Positions 1 through 10,619 of a stretch of DNA of 38,090 bases are shown here, one piece after another. The position numbers and the translations under genes were made by a program. Location of the stretch: assembly GCA_031291555.1 (NCBI GenBank), contig JARLIV010000171.1:1-38090 (forward strand). Reading direction: 5' to 3'. Within the stretch, counting starts at the first letter, position 1. Every line of letters starts with the position of its first letter. The notes below the pieces were generated by a model. That model was given only the letters and a program-made list of their open reading frames with translations, had not been told where the DNA came from and made no database searches. This stretch comes from Methylovirgula sp. (GTDB lineage Bacteria; Pseudomonadota; Alphaproteobacteria; Rhizobiales; Beijerinckiaceae).

Positions 1-134
1 ACCTGCGATGGCGTCAGGTCTCCCGCGTCAGCCTGCTCGCGCAGGCGGCGCTTCAGCTTGCCGACCAGCGCGCGAAGTTCGGCTGCCAGGGCGGAGGCGG
101 GTGTGCAATGGGGTTCGGGCAATGGTTCGCTCAT
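1..134 (-). CDS. MarR family transcriptional regulator, truncated at the window edge (N-terminal part only)
   Basis: Reverse-strand ATG at 132-134 gives MSEPLPEPHCTPASALAAELRALVGKLKRRLREQADAGDLTPSQV, which resembles a MarR N-terminus (LTPSQV). Confidence 0.6.
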   Translation of the reverse strand, partial: MSEPLPEPHCTPASALAAELRALVGKLKRRLREQADAGDLTPSQ

Positions 135-431
135 GGCAAAGCGATGCCATATATACAGGTAAACTGTAAAGTTAAACTTCATAGCCTGACGACGGGTCTG
201 ACCGTCGATGTGGCTTGTCCAAATCCACTTTGATCAGGCGGCGCAACCGTGACGGCCGGAACGCGGTCGCCGGCGCACAGCCACGATCCGGCGAATGCCC
301 GGCCCGGATCGATGCAAGTCAATGTGGGTAAGGTGGATTTTCCCGAAGGAAAATGGCTCCCTGAGTAGGATAACGAGTGATGATGTAACCATTTGTATTA
401 TCCTAATAAATAATTTGGGAGTTAGCTATAA

Positions 432-447: not shown

Positions 448-651
448 CTATGCGGCGTGGCTGAAAGCCCCTGTGAGCGCCTGCTGTTTCCAGGTCTCGA
501 TCTCAGCTTCCGTCCACGCGACGCGGCCGCGGCTTATCGGACGGCCGCGGGGAAATTCGCCGCGTGCAATCATGCGGTAGATGGTGGCGCGATGCAGCGA
601 GACCTCGCGCGAGACGTCGCTCATTTTGAGCAAGCGGCCAGGCGCGGTCAT
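448..651 (-). CDS. AlpA-like helix-turn-helix regulator
   Basis: MSDVSREVSLHRATIYRMIARGEFPRGRPISRGRVAWTEAEIETW is the AlpA/MerR-like HTH pattern. Confidence 0.8.
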   Translation of the reverse strand: MTAPGRLLKMSDVSREVSLHRATIYRMIARGEFPRGRPISRGRVAWTEAEIETWKQQALTGAFSHAA

Positions 652-711: not shown

Positions 712-2154
712 TCAGTAAAATTGAATACGAAAATCAGGCGCGGTGCGTTGGGCTGTCGCGCGAGTTAACTTGGGGGGGGGGGGGGCTGATTTTGGCTTTT
801 CGCCTGCCTCGAGATCGGCGGTTAATTCAGCCTTGAATTCGTTGAGCGCGAAACTGTGATCGAGGGACCGGTTTTCCTCGAACAGATCGTTGACGCTGCG
901 CAGAACGTCGGCGACCGTCACGCCGCGCGCGACGCCGGCCACCTTATCACGCGCGAAGGCATAGCGCTTCGCCCGTGACGGAATCGATGCAGCCATGGCG
1001 CCGCTAACAATGTGTTCGAGAAGAAAATGCCGGGCGCTTCGCGTTTTGATGTCGAGCTGATCATTTTTGAGCTCGATCCCGATCGTACGGAAATCTGCTA
1101 TTACCTTGAACGGGTCGAACAGGGCCTCGCAGGCGGCGACAACCAGGTTGTCGAGCGGATCCTGGCCGAGCAGGATCCCCGCGAAATTCTTGCGCAGGAT
1201 CGCCTCGATCGCCTCGGCGTTTGGCCGCTTGACGGTGATCTTGAAGTCGCAGCGGCCGTCGCGCAGGACGGCCTGGTCGATGACCTCAGGTCGGTTGGTA
1301 GCAAGCAGCACGAACGCGCCGCTTTCCTGCATGCCGTCCATTTCGGCGAGAAAGGTTGCGACCTGGCCTTCTTCCCAACTCGCGACTCTTCGCACGCGGC
1401 CCGTTCGATCGGGCAGCAGCACGTCGGCTTCATCCATGAAGACAAGCAGTGGATGTCCGTGGCGCGCCTTGTATTCTCGCGCGAACGTGAAAATGGCCTT
1501 GATGTGACCCTCGGTCACGCCGATGAACGGGCTTTGCAGCTCTGATCCGGAAATCGAGATGAACTCGAACTTACCGCCTTTGGCGTAGAGCCGCTTCATT
1601 TCGGAGGCGGCCGCGCGCGCGAACATCGTCTTGCCGCATCCGGGCGGTCCGGAGAGCAGCGCACCCTTGGGCATTTTCATGCCATAGGCATCATATAGTG
1701 ACTTGTGCTTGACGGGCGCCTCAATCGCATCCCGCAACCCCTCGAGCGCCTCGGCATTGCCGACGATGTCGTCGAAGGCCTGCTCGGGCGCGGTGCAGAG
1801 CCACTTTTCGACCCCTTTGCGCGCATCGCTATAGGATTCTGTTGGCGCGCCTGATGCGGAATTGTTAGGCGGCGGCATACCAAATGAATCTCGTATCGCG
1901 CGAAGCATTTCCGCACGGAGGCCTTCATAACTGTTGCCATTATTTGGGCTGATAGTTGTGAACACGGATGGTCCATTCGATGGAAATCCCCGGCCGGCCA
2001 AATCCGGATTGCACATCATGCAGTTGGGATCGCCGCAACCGCTTACCTTGCGCATTTCCTGTTCGCGCCGGTCCTGGTCACGCGGATCCAGCGAGCGGGG
2101 CATCTTCCCGCGATAATTCGGATCGTAGGGAGATCCGTATTTGTCCCAGCTCAT
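712..2154 (-). CDS. AAA family ATPase (CDC48/FtsH/proteasomal-ATPase-like)
   Basis: Walker A LLSGPPGCGKT, Walker B LLVFMDEAD, sensor LLATNRPEVID, and IVGNAEALEGLRDAIEAPVKH. Start assigned to MSWDKYGSPYD at 2154. C-terminus crosses a G14 run. Confidence 0.85.
   Translation of the reverse strand: MSWDKYGSPYDPNYRGKMPRSLDPRDQDRREQEMRKVSGCGDPNCMMCNPDLAGRGFPSNGPSVFTTISPNNGNSYEGLRAEMLRAIRDSFGMPPPNNSASGAPTESYSDARKGVEKWLCTAPEQAFDDIVGNAEALEGLRDAIEAPVKHKSLYDAYGMKMPKGALLSGPPGCGKTMFARAAASEMKRLYAKGGKFEFISISGSELQSPFIGVTEGHIKAIFTFAREYKARHGHPLLVFMDEADVLLPDRTGRVRRVASWEEGQVATFLAEMDGMQESGAFVLLATNRPEVIDQAVLRDGRCDFKITVKRPNAEAIEAILRKNFAGILLGQDPLDNLVVAACEALFDPFKVIADFRTIGIELKNDQLDIKTRSARHFLLEHIVSGAMAASIPSRAKRYAFARDKVAGVARGVTVADVLRSVNDLFEENRSLDHSFALNEFKAELTADLEAGEKPKSAPPPPKLTRATAQRTAPDFRIQFY
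772..785. repeat. Poly-G (poly-C on coding strand) homopolymer of 14 nt
   Basis: Direct reading of the sequence; encodes the PPPP tract near the ATPase C-terminus. Confidence 0.95.
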
Positions 2155-2176
2155 GCGCTTGCTACCCCTTCGATTG

Positions 2177-2455
2177 CTACGTGGTGGAAGTTGTGGGTGG
2201 AATCGGTGATATGGTGCGGGAGGCCTGGCGGCGCTTCCACGCGGCGGCATGTTCGGGACACAGGTCCTTGCCTGGTGCCGGGGCATGGGAGCATTTGGCG
2301 CAGATCGGGCGATCGCAGGTGCCGCTGCGGCGCGCGGGCACTTTCCAGTCGCAAAGGAGGCCGGCCACGCCACCGCAGACGCAGCGCTTCTTGGGGCTGG
2401 TGGTGCAGACGATCGCGCGCGTGCCGTTCGGAAGTGTGACGGAGTTGCAGGGCAT
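2177..2455 (-). CDS. Cys-rich putative zinc-binding phage protein
   Basis: CVCGGVAGLLCDW...GTCDRPICAKCSHAPAPGKDLCPEHAAAW; start overlaps the upstream stop as TGATG. Confidence 0.65.
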   Translation of the reverse strand: MPCNSVTLPNGTRAIVCTTSPKKRCVCGGVAGLLCDWKVPARRSGTCDRPICAKCSHAPAPGKDLCPEHAAAWKRRQASRTISPIPPTTSTT

Positions 2456-2607
2456 CACTGCCGCGTCGCTATGGCATTTGAAATTTCATGGACCAGCATC
2501 AGCGTAGCGGCGCCGACGCGCGGATTTTCGTCCGGCCAGACATCAGTGAACCAGGCCAAAAGCCGGACGGCGATCGCCACACGGATCGACCAGATAAGGC
2601 GCCTCAC
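2455..2607 (-). CDS. Small hypothetical protein (50 aa, GTG start, hydrophobic segment)
   Basis: VRRLIWSIRVAIAVRLLAWFTDVWPDENPRVGAATLMLVHEISNAIATRQ; GTGA overlap with the upstream gene and TGATG overlap with the downstream gene. Absent from the ORF track. Confidence 0.5.
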   Translation of the reverse strand: MRRLIWSIRVAIAVRLLAWFTDVWPDENPRVGAATLMLVHEISNAIATRQ

Positions 2608-3833
2608 GGTGCAATACTCTCCAGTTCAAGGATTTGATCGAGGCTCAATGCCGACTTCATTCGACGGCGGCGGCCGAAGTGGATTCCCAGCTTGTCGGTC
2701 GCGTATTTGCTGACCGTCATGGCATGGCGGTCGAGCGCAATCGCGAGGTCGGCAATTGCGATGCCGTTGGCGAACGCGATGCGGAATGCAGCCAGCTCGT
2801 CGGCGGTGTATGGGCGCCAGTAGCCATGCTTCAGCCCGAGGGTCCACGCGCGGTTCAGCACCGCCATGCGCGGCCGGCCCATAGCCGTCGCCAACTCGCG
2901 CGTGTTCATTTTGCCGTAGTGCTGGCGCAGAAATTTCTCTTCCTGAAGTGTCCAGATCGGAGCGATGCGCCATCCGGCAGTCTTTTCGTGCGTGCCCTGC
3001 AGGCCCAGCTCTTTCACTTTCCAACGGATAGAGGAGGGCGTGCGGCCGAGGCGCGTACGCAACGGCGTCAGGCTGGCGCCGGTGCGATATGCCTGGCGCA
3101 GTAACTGCTCTTCTTCGGGCAACCATGGGCGCCCCCAGCCACGGCCATAGCCAAGCTTGCGGATGCGCGATCCGAACCCCGCTTTGGTGCGACGCGGATG
3201 ACCCTCCGCGACGAGTGTTTCGATGATCGCAAGGTATTTGTGGCCCTGCTCAGCGAGTTCTAGCGCTCGATCGAGCTCGGAAACGGACCACCCGGGCGGG
3301 TGGTCAGGATGTGCGATGCAAAGCTTTGATGCTCTGCTGCGAACCGCTGCAATGCTTCGACCGATCAGCACACCGACCAGGCCGGGCGGCAACGCACGGC
3401 GATAGCCTTCGCGCAATTGCGCGTCTTCCCACGCCGACCATGCAGATTCTGCTAGCTCGGCCAGCCCGAGCAACTGCGCACGCGCATAGATCGAAGCGCA
3501 CGAGCGGCCGAGCTCCTGCGCAAGCACGGCGCAAGACGCGGAGCCGTAGCGCCCAACCAGCACGGCGTCTTCCAGATCGGTCCACGCGAGACGGGTCGAT
3601 CGACGCAGGCCGAGGCGCCACGCGCGATCGGCCACACCCGATACAGGCCGGCCGAGCACGCGCGCGATCTCGTCAAACGGCAGGGCTTTGCCGAACAGAT
3701 CGCGCAAGCGCTCGTCTTCGTCGGGCAGCCAGGCGTTGGCGCGGAACGCAATCTCTCGCAACGGATGCACCGTGTCGGCATCGGGCGAGCAAGGTACTAG
3801 CTCGACAAGATCGATATCGAGATCGTCTATCAT
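2604..3833 (-). CDS. Multi-domain DNA-binding protein with about seven tandem Myb/SANT-like (GcrA-like) HTH modules
   Basis: Repeated W-x(3-4)-E-x(2)-L ... (R/K)A-x-x-LGL units begin at WLPDEDERL, WTDLEDAVL, WSAWEDAQL, WSVSELDRA, WLPEEEQLL, WTLQEEKFL and YTADELAAF. Confidence 0.7.
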   Translation of the reverse strand: MIDDLDIDLVELVPCSPDADTVHPLREIAFRANAWLPDEDERLRDLFGKALPFDEIARVLGRPVSGVADRAWRLGLRRSTRLAWTDLEDAVLVGRYGSASCAVLAQELGRSCASIYARAQLLGLAELAESAWSAWEDAQLREGYRRALPPGLVGVLIGRSIAAVRSRASKLCIAHPDHPPGWSVSELDRALELAEQGHKYLAIIETLVAEGHPRRTKAGFGSRIRKLGYGRGWGRPWLPEEEQLLRQAYRTGASLTPLRTRLGRTPSSIRWKVKELGLQGTHEKTAGWRIAPIWTLQEEKFLRQHYGKMNTRELATAMGRPRMAVLNRAWTLGLKHGYWRPYTADELAAFRIAFANGIAIADLAIALDRHAMTVSKYATDKLGIHFGRRRRMKSALSLDQILELESIAP

Positions 3834-5044
3834 GACAGCGCCACGACCTTGATATCTGTGAGGCGCTGGCGCAGCCGGGCGTGTAACCGAGCAATGCGAC
3901 CGGGGCCGCGTGGCATTGTTTCGACCGCCGCCATTGCGGACAGGATATCCAGCGCGTCATCCACTTCGGACACCGGCGCGCCCAGGTGCAGCGCGAGATC
4001 TCCGCTGGTGGTCGCGCTTGGCGAGATCTTACGCAGCGCGGCAACGGTGCGAGCGGCGGTCGCAGCGTTGGGATCGAGCAGGAACGCATCGATCGCGCCG
4101 CGCCCCTTCGTAACCAGATGAACATCACGGCTTGTCGCGGCGCATGATCGCAAGGAATCGAGGTCGAGTAGCTCGCGCGCGCGGTCTGCGCCATGGGCTG
4201 CGGACTCGATGAGATCAGGCGTGCAACCCAGGTGTCGCGTGATCGACGGATCGATCTTGATGAGCTCGGGAACGTCGCAGAGCGCCGGCCCGAACGCAAA
4301 AAACATGCCGGGCGCCAGATTGCGAAATCGATCGGCGTTCGTGCGGTCGAAACCGAGCAAGTCTGCCGCGCGCGCGATATCGCGGTCGAACACGTTGATG
4401 CCGACGAGAAAGTTCTGCAGCTCGGAAACAACCGACGTTGCGAGCTTTGCCAGGCGCTGGGTCGCAATGACCGGCGCGACCCCGCGCTTGCGGCCGCGGG
4501 CGCACACATCGGTCAATGTAGCGACTCCGATGCGCCGCGTTTCTGCATCGCGCGCGCTGCCGGCGAGATGCGGGGCGAGCAAGTGACCTTCGTCGATCGC
4601 CAGCAGGACCGTATTCGCCCAATATTCGCGATCGACAGCGATCAGCCCCGATAGAAATGCCGATGCGCGCAAGATGCGGTCTTCGGGATCGAGGTCGGTC
4701 AGATCGACGTGGAGGTTGATCCGGTGCTGCCGGCCGCGAACCGCCGCAGCGGTCAACCCTTCGTTGGTAAGCTCGGCCGCGCGGATAGTGGTTGCGCCAA
4801 TGTGTTCCGCTAGATTGCCGAACTCGCCTTCCGGGTCGACGATCATCACGGTCAGATAATCGAATGCCTCTTCGACGATCTTGCGCAACGTGAAAGATTT
4901 GCCGGCGCCGGAACTGCCCTGGATCAAAAGACGACCCGCCATCAATTTGTCGAGATCGAGATTGATGACGAGCCCGCTGGTGTGGCCGATCGGCACGCGG
5001 TTTGCAGGCGGTACAACGCTGGCGACGGCAGAAAGGGCACTCAT
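3830..5044 (-). CDS. HerA/FtsK-like P-loop ATPase (DUF87-like)
   Basis: Walker A LLIQGSSGAGKSFTLRKI, MIVDPEGEFGNL, Walker B VLLAIDEGHLLAP, GRKRGVAPVIATQRLAKL. Confidence 0.8.
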   Translation of the reverse strand: MSALSAVASVVPPANRVPIGHTSGLVINLDLDKLMAGRLLIQGSSGAGKSFTLRKIVEEAFDYLTVMIVDPEGEFGNLAEHIGATTIRAAELTNEGLTAAAVRGRQHRINLHVDLTDLDPEDRILRASAFLSGLIAVDREYWANTVLLAIDEGHLLAPHLAGSARDAETRRIGVATLTDVCARGRKRGVAPVIATQRLAKLATSVVSELQNFLVGINVFDRDIARAADLLGFDRTNADRFRNLAPGMFFAFGPALCDVPELIKIDPSITRHLGCTPDLIESAAHGADRARELLDLDSLRSCAATSRDVHLVTKGRGAIDAFLLDPNAATAARTVAALRKISPSATTSGDLALHLGAPVSEVDDALDILSAMAAVETMPRGPGRIARLHARLRQRLTDIKVVALS

Positions 5045-6765: not shown

Positions 6766-7279
6766 CGACCGCCTCCGTCGTCAGACTGAGCTCTTCCGGT
6801 GTCGGCCAATGCCAAAATCCCTGGGCACCCCGCATGGGGACAGACGCATCCCAGACCTCGATATCCAGCATGGGCCAACCCCAGTTGGCGTGTTCATCTC
6901 GATCGCTGTCGTTGGCGCGGGGGACGCTGAATTCTTCGGCAATTTCCGGGCCGGGGCGGGGTTCGCCGACGATTGCGGTGCCCAGGCCACAGGCCATGGG
7001 GAGCTCCCCTCCGATGGCCATGCCAAGTATTGGCAAAGCCTTTTCAGGTACAAGGCAGGTTTCCGCTGCATCGACACGATGATCGTCCGACCTGTCCCGC
7101 ATGGTGAGAACGCGAAACAGATCGAGTGTTTCGAGCAAATTCATCTTGCGCGCGGCGGCATGGATGACGATGCGCTGGCCGATGATTGAACGCGGCGCGC
7201 GCCAGCCACGGAATTCGTAGGGCTTTGCGCCCGCAATGATCAGGCTGGCCCAGGGCTGCCAGATGGTGAGCGCTTTCAT
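6758..7279 (-). CDS. ASCH domain-containing protein
   Basis: MKALTIWQPWASLIIAGAKPYEFRGW is a classic ASCH N-terminus. Confidence 0.85.
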   Translation of the reverse strand: MKALTIWQPWASLIIAGAKPYEFRGWRAPRSIIGQRIVIHAAARKMNLLETLDLFRVLTMRDRSDDHRVDAAETCLVPEKALPILGMAIGGELPMACGLGTAIVGEPRPGPEIAEEFSVPRANDSDRDEHANWGWPMLDIEVWDASVPMRGAQGFWHWPTPEELSLTTEAVDA

Positions 7280-8268
7280 GCCGCACCGCCCAGGCCGAAG
7301 GACTCGGTCAGCTTGGTGAATTGGACGGCGGGGAGGTTGATGCCGGTAGGGATAGCGTTGTGCTCGACGCCATCGAGCAGGCGGCCGGCGGCTTTCTTTC
7401 CGACGCGGGTGAGGCTGGCCAACTTGAATTGTCGCGCCAGCGCGCTATCAAACAAGTCAGGTGACTGGCATCGACCGTCCTGATCGATTACTTTGATATT
7501 GGCCCAAGAATTGCGAACATAGGGCGACCACTCACCCCACTGCTTAAAGAAATAGGCGATGCCTCGCGGCGCGCACCAATCCCGCGTGGCGCGTTGCCAG
7601 TCTGGATGCATCGGGCGCGCATTCGGGCCGGATTCTCCGCCACCGATTATCTGGTGGACAAAATCCCAGCCTTCCCAGTCGACGGGACCGAGCGCCGGCT
7701 CGTAACTGACGAATTTCACTGCGCCGGGCGTGGCGCGGAAATCCTCGCGGCGTTCATCGGCACGGGTCTGATCCTCAACGCTGACGCCGAGCCAGACATT
7801 CGGGAGGGGCCACTGCCAACGCGTCGGCAAACCGCCAAGGTATCGGCATTGATCGAGCACGCGCTCCGGCGTGGCGGGATCCTCGAAATAGCGACGCATG
7901 TGCGTGCTACGCTTGGTCAGGAACAAGTGGATATGCTGGAGCGTCAGCGCCGCGACGGCAAGTTCGCGATCGATCCATTCGACCGGTACGGATTCATGCC
8001 AGGCATCGCCGTGCGCGTTCCAGAATATCCGGCGCGGGCGTCGCCAGGACAGCGGGCGCCGGAGCCAGGTCTCGTTGAGCCGGACGGCGCCGGTCCAGAC
8101 ATGGCCCGCTTTGCTTTCCTGCGTCAGGCCGTTTGACGGGTGGTGGGGGCGCCCCATGCCGCCGGCGCGCATGGCGAAGCAATTGGCGCAGCCTGGCGAG
8201 ATCGGCGTGCACCCGCTGATCGCGTTGACGGTCGCATGACACCATTCGATGTTGCTGTTGTCAGCCAT
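7276..8268 (-). CDS. Phage Gp37/Gp68 family (DUF5131) protein
   Basis: NIEWCHATVNAISGCTPISPGCANCFAMR...HLFLTKRSTHMRRYF...NVWLGVSVEDQTRADER...IIGGGESGPNARPMHPDWQRATRDWC...FFKQWGEW. Confidence 0.92.
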   Translation of the reverse strand: MADNSNIEWCHATVNAISGCTPISPGCANCFAMRAGGMGRPHHPSNGLTQESKAGHVWTGAVRLNETWLRRPLSWRRPRRIFWNAHGDAWHESVPVEWIDRELAVAALTLQHIHLFLTKRSTHMRRYFEDPATPERVLDQCRYLGGLPTRWQWPLPNVWLGVSVEDQTRADERREDFRATPGAVKFVSYEPALGPVDWEGWDFVHQIIGGGESGPNARPMHPDWQRATRDWCAPRGIAYFFKQWGEWSPYVRNSWANIKVIDQDGRCQSPDLFDSALARQFKLASLTRVGKKAAGRLLDGVEHNAIPTGINLPAVQFTKLTESFGLGGAA

Positions 8269-10012: not shown

Positions 10013-10383
10013 GGTGCACCCGATGTAGGTTCGAGCACGCGGACCGGCTTTAGCGTCGACAGAAACGCGGCATCGGCACATTCTGCGCGATCGGCGTGAG
10101 GCACGATCTTTCGGAAAGATCTGGAATCAAACCTTCGGCCAGGGAAGCGCGTGAAACACAAAACAATAAAGTCTTCGCCATTGAAGGGAACCAAAACCAC
10201 ATCAATGACAACGCGAATTTCGCCCTTAACCGGGCCCGGCGGCATTTGCTGAAAGGTGCCATTGCTGATCCACGACCCCTCGCCGATGCATTCGGCCATG
10301 TCACCGGCGGACCAAGACCGATCGAGCCCGATGCTATGTTGGGTGCAGCCAAGCATGCTGAGGAAAAACGACCGGATACCCAT
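10006..10383 (-). CDS. Hypothetical protein
   Basis: 125 aa ORF whose start touches the downstream end of the DUF2312 gene. Confidence 0.5.
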   Translation of the reverse strand: MGIRSFFLSMLGCTQHSIGLDRSWSAGDMAECIGEGSWISNGTFQQMPPGPVKGEIRVVIDVVLVPFNGEDFIVLCFTRFPGRRFDSRSFRKIVPHADRAECADAAFLSTLKPVRVLEPTSGAPC

Positions 10384-10619
10384 CAGTCGATCCCCAGCGC
10401 GTTTTTGTAGGTCTCGAGAATCGCTTCCATTTCGCGGCGATCGTCGGGCTTCATTTTGCGAAGGCGGACGATTTCGCGGACGATCTTGGCGTCATAGCCG
10501 GTGGCTTTCGCCTCGGCGTAGACGTCCTTGATATCGTCGCCGATACCCTTCTTTTCTTCCTCAAGGCGTTCGATGCGCTCGATCAACAGGCGCAGGCGAT
10601 CATCGGCGGCTTCAGGCAT
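10383..10619 (-). CDS. DUF2312 / GapR-like DNA-binding protein
   Basis: [69 protein letters not shown]. Confidence 0.93.

What the first reader, a model, noticed from the sequence alone, without database searches (positions are those of the whole stretch)
712..5044. Unusual early cassette: CDC48-like AAA ATPase, Cys-rich protein, TM-like micro-ORF, multi-SANT protein and HerA-like ATPase
Five genes in one overlapping run pair two different ATPases with a modular DNA-binding protein. No helicase, primase, DnaC-like or transposase gene was recognised in the window, so this cassette could be the phage's replication, segregation or DNA-translocation machinery, or a defence/counter-defence island. 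HerA usually pairs with NurA or another nuclease; none is visible here.
Basis: inference. Interest (0 to 1): 0.7.

Follow-up and report, generated by a model that had tools for sequence, protein, structure and literature searches.

The report
Paired DNA motor and DNA-binding protein
A prophage in an alphaproteobacterium carries a strictly linked pair of genes, a HerA-type DNA motor and a protein made of seven Myb/SANT-like DNA-binding units, and the same pair occurs in many related plasmids and phages, so it is probably a shared two-part machine by which mobile elements handle their own DNA, while the other three genes of the proposed cassette are separate add-ons.

Summary
The five ORFs exist as described (AAA start corrected to 2154), but they are not one cassette. 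They form the distal end of a ~12-kb minus-strand early operon just before an AlpA-type excisionase gene. The real unit is two genes: a HerA-type ATPase (3830-5044) and a protein of seven SANT/Myb-like units (2604-3833). In every full-length relative found (24/24 species-genome loci, 8/8 distinct viral contigs, 2/2 phage records, 23/23 plasmid records; overlapping sets) the SANT gene directly follows HerA, usually with a 1-4-bp overlap. The partnership persists when HerA falls to ~40% identity (3/3 loci). Both genes are under strong purifying selection and their distances track each other (r=0.94). AAA, Cys-rich and micro-ORF do not travel with the pair; AAA belongs to another module near AlpA. 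Conventional replication genes coexist with the pair in some phages, plasmids carry it too, and no nuclease partner is conserved. So replication-initiator and classic HerA-nuclease readings are weak; packaging is implausible (own terminase). Best reading: a two-subunit, SANT-targeted DNA translocase acting on the mobile element's own DNA during establishment or maintenance. Pairing is shown; the mechanism is inferred. No description was found in the literature searched. New variant of a known kind.

The parts
3830..5044 (-). HerA-type ATPase (404 aa): short N-terminus without HAS barrel, RecA-like motor core (about 11-280), C-terminal region with wHTH-like topology (about 327-390)
   Evidence: Pfam DUF87 8.8e-12; invariant Walker A, Walker B D151/E152 and GRKRG arginine finger; AlphaFold model pLDDT 78.9; best HerA structures Z 28.8, chain 8xaw_D, 252 residues at 3.3 A
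2604..3833 (-). Multi-SANT/Myb-like DNA-binding protein (409 aa), seven three-helix repeats plus C-terminal helix; start overlaps HerA stop by 4 bp
   Evidence: PHROG 323 2.2e-47; Pfam Myb_DNA-binding 1e-5 and GcrA 6e-4; seven helix triplets in the model; repeat alignment; Foldseek top rows Reb1 and c-Myb, weak
2455..2607 (-). 50-aa hydrophobic micro-ORF between SANT and Cys; coding status uncertain
   Evidence: overlaps both neighbours; weak positive codon score; no relative above chance
2177..2458 (-). Small Cys-rich, probably zinc-binding, phage protein; mobile, not bound to the pair
   Evidence: 50-61% relatives in phages with HerA-SANT (L002, L073, L075) and in phages with AAA only (L063, L064, L067)
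712..2154 (-). Single-domain classical AAA ATPase (480 aa); separate module that lies near AlpA in other phages
   Evidence: Pfam AAA 8e-30; 56-67% relatives in L062-L067 and Brevundimonas phages Strzyga and Polewnik, none next to HerA-SANT in the stretches read
448..651 (-). AlpA-type excisionase/regulator, last gene of the early operon
   Evidence: Pfam Phage_AlpA 1.2e-13; PHROG excisionase 6.7e-14

Best explanation
The core is a two-gene unit, HerA-SANT. The HerA-type protein is a ring-forming P-loop motor of the FtsK-HerA superfamily that lacks the N-terminal HAS barrel used for nuclease docking. It appears to carry its own C-terminal winged-helix-like region. The SANT protein is a string of seven Myb-like units that binds DNA over a long stretch and, I infer, recruits or orients the motor on the mobile element's own DNA. 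The pair then moves along or pumps double-stranded DNA in an ATP-dependent way during establishment or maintenance of the element (keeping entering or replicated copies clear, separated or protected), not for virion packaging or replication initiation. Shown: gene linkage, overlap, selection, folds, absence of HAS barrel and of a conserved nuclease, co-existence with other replication genes. Inferred: ring form, physical complex, DNA targeting by SANT, translocation, and the stage of the life cycle.
For: Linkage: SANT directly downstream in 24/24 species-genome loci, 8/8 distinct viral contigs with HerA >=59%, 2/2 phage records and 23/23 plasmid records. Overlap of 1 or 4 bp in about 33 of 37 distinct loci. 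HerA at 40-42% identity (L044, L076, L077) is still followed, overlapping, by a 275-281-aa protein with SANT-like segments that aligns to the SANT family by hhalign (Prob 96.7, E 3.8e-10). Distance correlation r 0.936, 0 of 2000 permutations as high; dN/dS 0.03-0.07 (HerA) and about 0.10-0.13 (SANT). Motor fold and intact active site. Single-gene HerA relatives carry DNA-binding-like domains in cis by sequence reading: paired C-terminal wHTH-like repeats in L005/L006/L079/L080, an HTH in a Piscinibacter plasmid. SANT is fused to a GHKL ATPase in Qipengyuania and precedes such a gene in L026, L033, L038, so it also tethers to another large ATPase. Plasmid neighbours include ParB, ArdC-like zincin, Mom, N6-methylase and toprim genes.
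Against: No biochemical data. Oligomeric state, DNA binding and complex formation were not modelled (single chains only; SANT inter-domain pTM 0.27). No conserved DNA target repeat was found in the window. Linkage alone would also fit a defence or regulatory pair. Loci are partly related, so they are not fully independent.
Confidence: 0.45

Rival explanations
1. Counter-defence: the pair coats or clears the element's DNA on entry so that restriction or other host systems cannot act on it.
For: Plasmid loci lie near ArdC-like zincin, Mom-family, N6-methylase and thermonuclease genes; phages and conjugative plasmids share entry as a common stage; work on polyvalent proteins places ArdC-type genes in this role (PMC5512222).
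Against: Neighbours vary between loci; the window itself has none of these next to the pair; no PADLOC model matches SANT.
Confidence: 0.2
2. Defence: the element uses the pair against competing phages or plasmids, as in HerA-nuclease and HerA/FtsK capture systems.
For: The motor is closest by fold to HerA of anti-phage complexes; PADLOC models mad8 and HerA match weakly, and mad2 weakly matches the linked methylase of some plasmids.
Against: No HAS barrel, no conserved nuclease or other effector beside the pair; NYN, methylase and GHKL genes are only occasional neighbours.
Confidence: 0.12
3. Replication or recombination module replacing the missing helicase/primase of this phage.
For: No clear replication gene in the window and none evident among the larger proteins of similar phages G964, G966, G968.
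Against: G965 has a D5-like and a primase-like protein, G969 a large DUF927 protein and G963 a DUF1376 protein in addition to HerA-SANT; plasmids with their own replicons carry the pair; AAA-type phages without the pair exist.
Confidence: 0.1
4. SANT is an early transcription regulator (D5-like/GcrA-like) and HerA a loosely related passenger.
For: PHROG 323 is named a transcriptional regulator; units resemble GcrA's DNA-binding domain.
Against: Strict linkage with overlap, co-variation of distances and persistence of the pair at 40% HerA identity make a passenger unlikely.
Confidence: 0.1

Closest known systems
HerA (HerA-NurA, SIR2-HerA, HerA-DUF4297)
   Same: P-loop motor core, Walker A/B and arginine finger; structures align over about 250 residues, Z 25-29
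   Different: No HAS barrel (model residue 11 aligns to HerA residue 116), no nuclease partner, C-terminal wHTH-like region, SANT partner
Chromosomal HerA-like ATP-binding protein of Alphaproteobacteria
   Same: 41% identity over the motor; also without HAS barrel; found in about half of 298 genomes of the host family
   Different: About 480-500 aa with another C-terminal region, single gene, chromosome-type neighbours such as ppc, murI, rpsD
HerA/FtsK capture systems and related mobile operons (PMC10853773)
   Same: HerA/FtsK motor with separate HTH proteins in mobile operons with recombinases
   Different: Those pair with nuclease, Orc/Cdc6 or D5 helicase; the words SANT and Myb do not occur in that paper
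TrwB/TcpA coupling proteins, STIV2 B204 packaging NTPase, FtsK
   Same: Same motor superfamily, Z 19-21
   Different: No conjugation genes in the phage; the phage packs with its own terminase
PHROG 323 (D5-like) and GcrA
   Same: SANT/Myb-like units
   Different: Seven units here; GcrA matches only within single units

Membership tests
HerA family | HerA/FtsK P-loop motor core with Walker A, Walker B and arginine finger | tested here: met
   Pfam DUF87 46 bits against cut-off 23.2; invariant columns; Z 28.8
HerA family | N-terminal HAS barrel | tested here: not met
   Walker A begins near residue 43; model residue 11 aligns to HerA residue 116
HerA family | Curated HerA equivalog score (NF040819) | tested here: not met
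   27.5 bits against cut-off 970
HerA-nuclease defence systems | Adjacent NurA, SIR2, DUF4297 or other nuclease | tested here: not met
   None in the operon; no constant neighbour but SANT
HerA/FtsK capture systems | HerA motor plus separate DNA-binding HTH protein | tested here: met
   HerA-SANT linkage
HerA/FtsK capture systems | Linked nuclease or Orc/Cdc6 effector | tested here: not met
   Not among conserved neighbours
Viral packaging ATPase | Serves as the packaging motor of the virus | tested here: not met
   The phage has a lambda-type large terminase, E 1.3e-184, and portal, E 1.7e-114
Conjugative coupling protein | Conjugation machinery in the same element | tested here: not met
   No such gene found in the prophage
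PHROG 323 D5-like proteins (SANT protein) | Profile match over repeated HTH units | tested here: met
   E 2.2e-47, 4 stretches
GcrA (SANT protein) | Match above the curated Pfam score | tested here: not met
   20.6 bits against 26.9
CDC48 (AAA protein) | Two AAA domains and curated score | tested here: not met
   One AAA domain, residues 166-309; 133 bits against 803

The most novel reading that the evidence does not exclude
HerA-SANT, in some plasmids with a SANT-fused or adjacent GHKL ATPase, is an undescribed DNA-translocation machine shared by plasmids and temperate phages of Alphaproteobacteria, in which a multi-Myb protein loads a nuclease-free HerA ring onto the element's own DNA to secure establishment or inheritance.
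Probability: 0.35. Interest if true: 0.72.

Novelty: new variant of a known kind. Interest (0 to 1): 0.5.

Why it matters
HerA motors are known mainly with nucleases in repair and defence. A HerA-type motor strictly tied to a multi-Myb DNA-binding protein, without nuclease, and exchanged between plasmids and phages, would show a different use of this motor and gives a clean two-gene system for testing how a DNA pump is aimed at particular DNA.

Tried and rejected
Five-gene cassette: rejected, as AAA, Cys and micro-ORF do not follow the pair. Packaging role: rejected because of the phage's own terminase and portal. Conjugation: no such genes in the phage. Target-site repeats in the early region: only chance-like families, no tandem array near the pair. 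RNA elements in the first 13.5 kb: none. Near-identical phages or plasmids by DNA: none for the first 25 kb. Full-length SANT homologues in the host's own family, order and class samples: none but the window's, so the closest relatives are in Sphingomonadales although the host appears to belong to another order (inferred from this absence). Papers joining HerA with SANT or Myb-like and phage: none. MADS system: weak profile hits only and no open paper found on it. Whether the linked methylase is active was not tested. The C-terminal wHTH-like region of HerA was read from the model only, not searched alone.

Full report
What is there. The window is the whole contig C19 (38,090 bp) of a fragmented alphaproteobacterial genome. 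Minus-strand early genes run from about 12.0 kb to 0.45 kb, plus-strand genes from about 12.1 kb to the right end, with a lambda-type terminase and portal and contractile-tail genes. The finding covers the end of the early operon. The five ORFs are real reading frames with one correction: the AAA gene starts at ATG 2154, not at GTG 2373. HerA and the gene before it, HerA-SANT, SANT-micro and micro-Cys overlap by 4 bp; AAA follows Cys after about 22 bp and is followed by an AlpA-type gene at 448-651. Left of that, a MarR-like reading frame runs off the contig; a relative lies in a genome of the same family, so the prophage end lies between about 190 and 448, and no integrase was found on the contig.

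The pair. A scan of species genomes with the HerA protein found 24 relatives at 61-67% identity, nearly all in Sphingomonadales, and viral contigs gave more. Comparison of all window proteins with these loci shows that the SANT gene, and only it, is always next to HerA. Two of the 24 have a disrupted HerA frame and one ends inside SANT. On plasmids, the 23 records with a full HerA relative at 60% or more are the same records that have full SANT beside it; two further plasmids hold SANT fragments only. The junction overlaps by 1 or 4 bp in about 33 of 37 distinct loci; exceptions are L017, L018 and the two disrupted ones. In three loci with HerA at 40-42% identity, BLAST sees no SANT gene, but the next gene, overlapping by 4 bp, encodes 275-281 aa with SANT-like segments, and in two of the three there is a (weak in one) Pfam HTH_17 match at the C-terminal part; profile comparison with the SANT family gives probability 96.7 and E 3.8e-10 (only three sequences on one side). 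HerA and SANT distances correlate at r 0.936, with 0 of 2000 permutations as high (shared ancestry of the loci contributes). dN/dS is 0.03-0.07 for HerA and about 0.10-0.13 for SANT.

The proteins. The HerA-like model (pLDDT 78.9) matches HerA structures at Z up to 28.8 over 252 residues. The alignment starts at HerA residue 116, so the HAS barrel is missing. Walker A, Walker B and the GRKRG arginine finger are invariant in 26 relatives. Residues 327-390 have the helix-helix-helix-strand-strand order of a winged helix (my reading, not searched alone). The SANT model has seven helix triplets (37-73, 86-121, 134-170, 184-226, 239-275, 296-331, 344-382) and one last helix, well predicted singly but not relative to each other (pTM 0.27). 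The seven segments align on a common W..E...L......LA..LGR....RA..LGL pattern. PHROG 323 matches at 2.2e-47; Foldseek gives Reb1 and c-Myb first, at weak E-values.

The other three genes. AAA relatives at 56-67% in L062-L067 and two Brevundimonas phages lie without HerA-SANT in the stretches read, and in three of them (L063, L064, L067) near GapR-like, Cys-rich and AlpA genes. Cys-rich relatives occur in phages of either kind. The micro-ORF has no relative above chance. The early operon end is therefore a slot that holds different modules; this phage has both.

What it is for. Six HerA-SANT phage contigs were read end to end by larger genes. G965 has D5-like and primase-like proteins, G969 a large DUF927 protein, G963 a DUF1376 protein and a ParB-like protein whose gene overlaps HerA, while G964, G966 and G968 resemble the window in having no evident replication enzyme among proteins of 180 aa or more. 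Together with presence on many plasmids this makes a replication-initiator role unlikely. Packaging is done by the terminase. No nuclease is conserved, unlike HerA defence systems and the HerA/FtsK capture systems of PMC10853773. In plasmids the pair lies near ParB-like, ArdC-like zincin, thermonuclease, Mom-family, N6-methylase and NYN genes, none constant. SANT is fused to a GHKL ATPase in Qipengyuania and is followed by such a gene in L026, L033 and L038. HerA relatives that stand alone in other phages (L005, L006, L079, L080) have long C-terminal extensions with repeated wHTH-like segments (sequence reading). The common theme is a HerA-type motor with a DNA-binding part, in cis or as a separate gene. 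I therefore favour a SANT-targeted DNA translocase acting on the element's own DNA at establishment or maintenance. The linkage is shown; complex, target and stage are inferred.

Limits. Loci are partly related and were found by HerA similarity, so the linkage counts are not independent samples. The literature library holds open-licence papers only; absence there is not proof of novelty. The host's order was not named by any tool.

Noticed in passing
window 772-785: A run of 14 C (on the minus strand) near the 3' end of the AAA gene, the only run of 10 or more in the window (0.07 matches expected). The three frames after it give tails of different length: possible phase-variable tail or assembly error.
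   Followed up: partly
L113:16133-19084: SANT protein fused to a GHKL (HATPase_c) ATPase on a Qipengyuania plasmid; separate GHKL genes directly after SANT in L026, L033, L038.
   Followed up: partly
window 10383-10619: GapR-like DNA-binding protein (Pfam 7.3e-35), also in several related phages, 43-75% identity.
   Followed up: no
window 7276-8268: DUF5131 protein (5.6e-77) that matches PADLOC candidate defence models PDC-M41B and PDC-M30B.
   Followed up: no
window 1-135: Start of a MarR-like gene running off the contig; marks the chromosomal side of the prophage.
   Followed up: partly
L098:12091-14106: ParB-like gene (HTH_ParB 1.4e-8) overlapping the start of HerA in viral contig G963, giving a ParB-HerA-SANT run.
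   Followed up: no
L035:7968-9422 and L036:7983-9497: A chromosome-type HerA-like ATP-binding protein without HAS barrel, with relatives in about half of 298 genomes of the host family, with no function known to me.
   Followed up: partly
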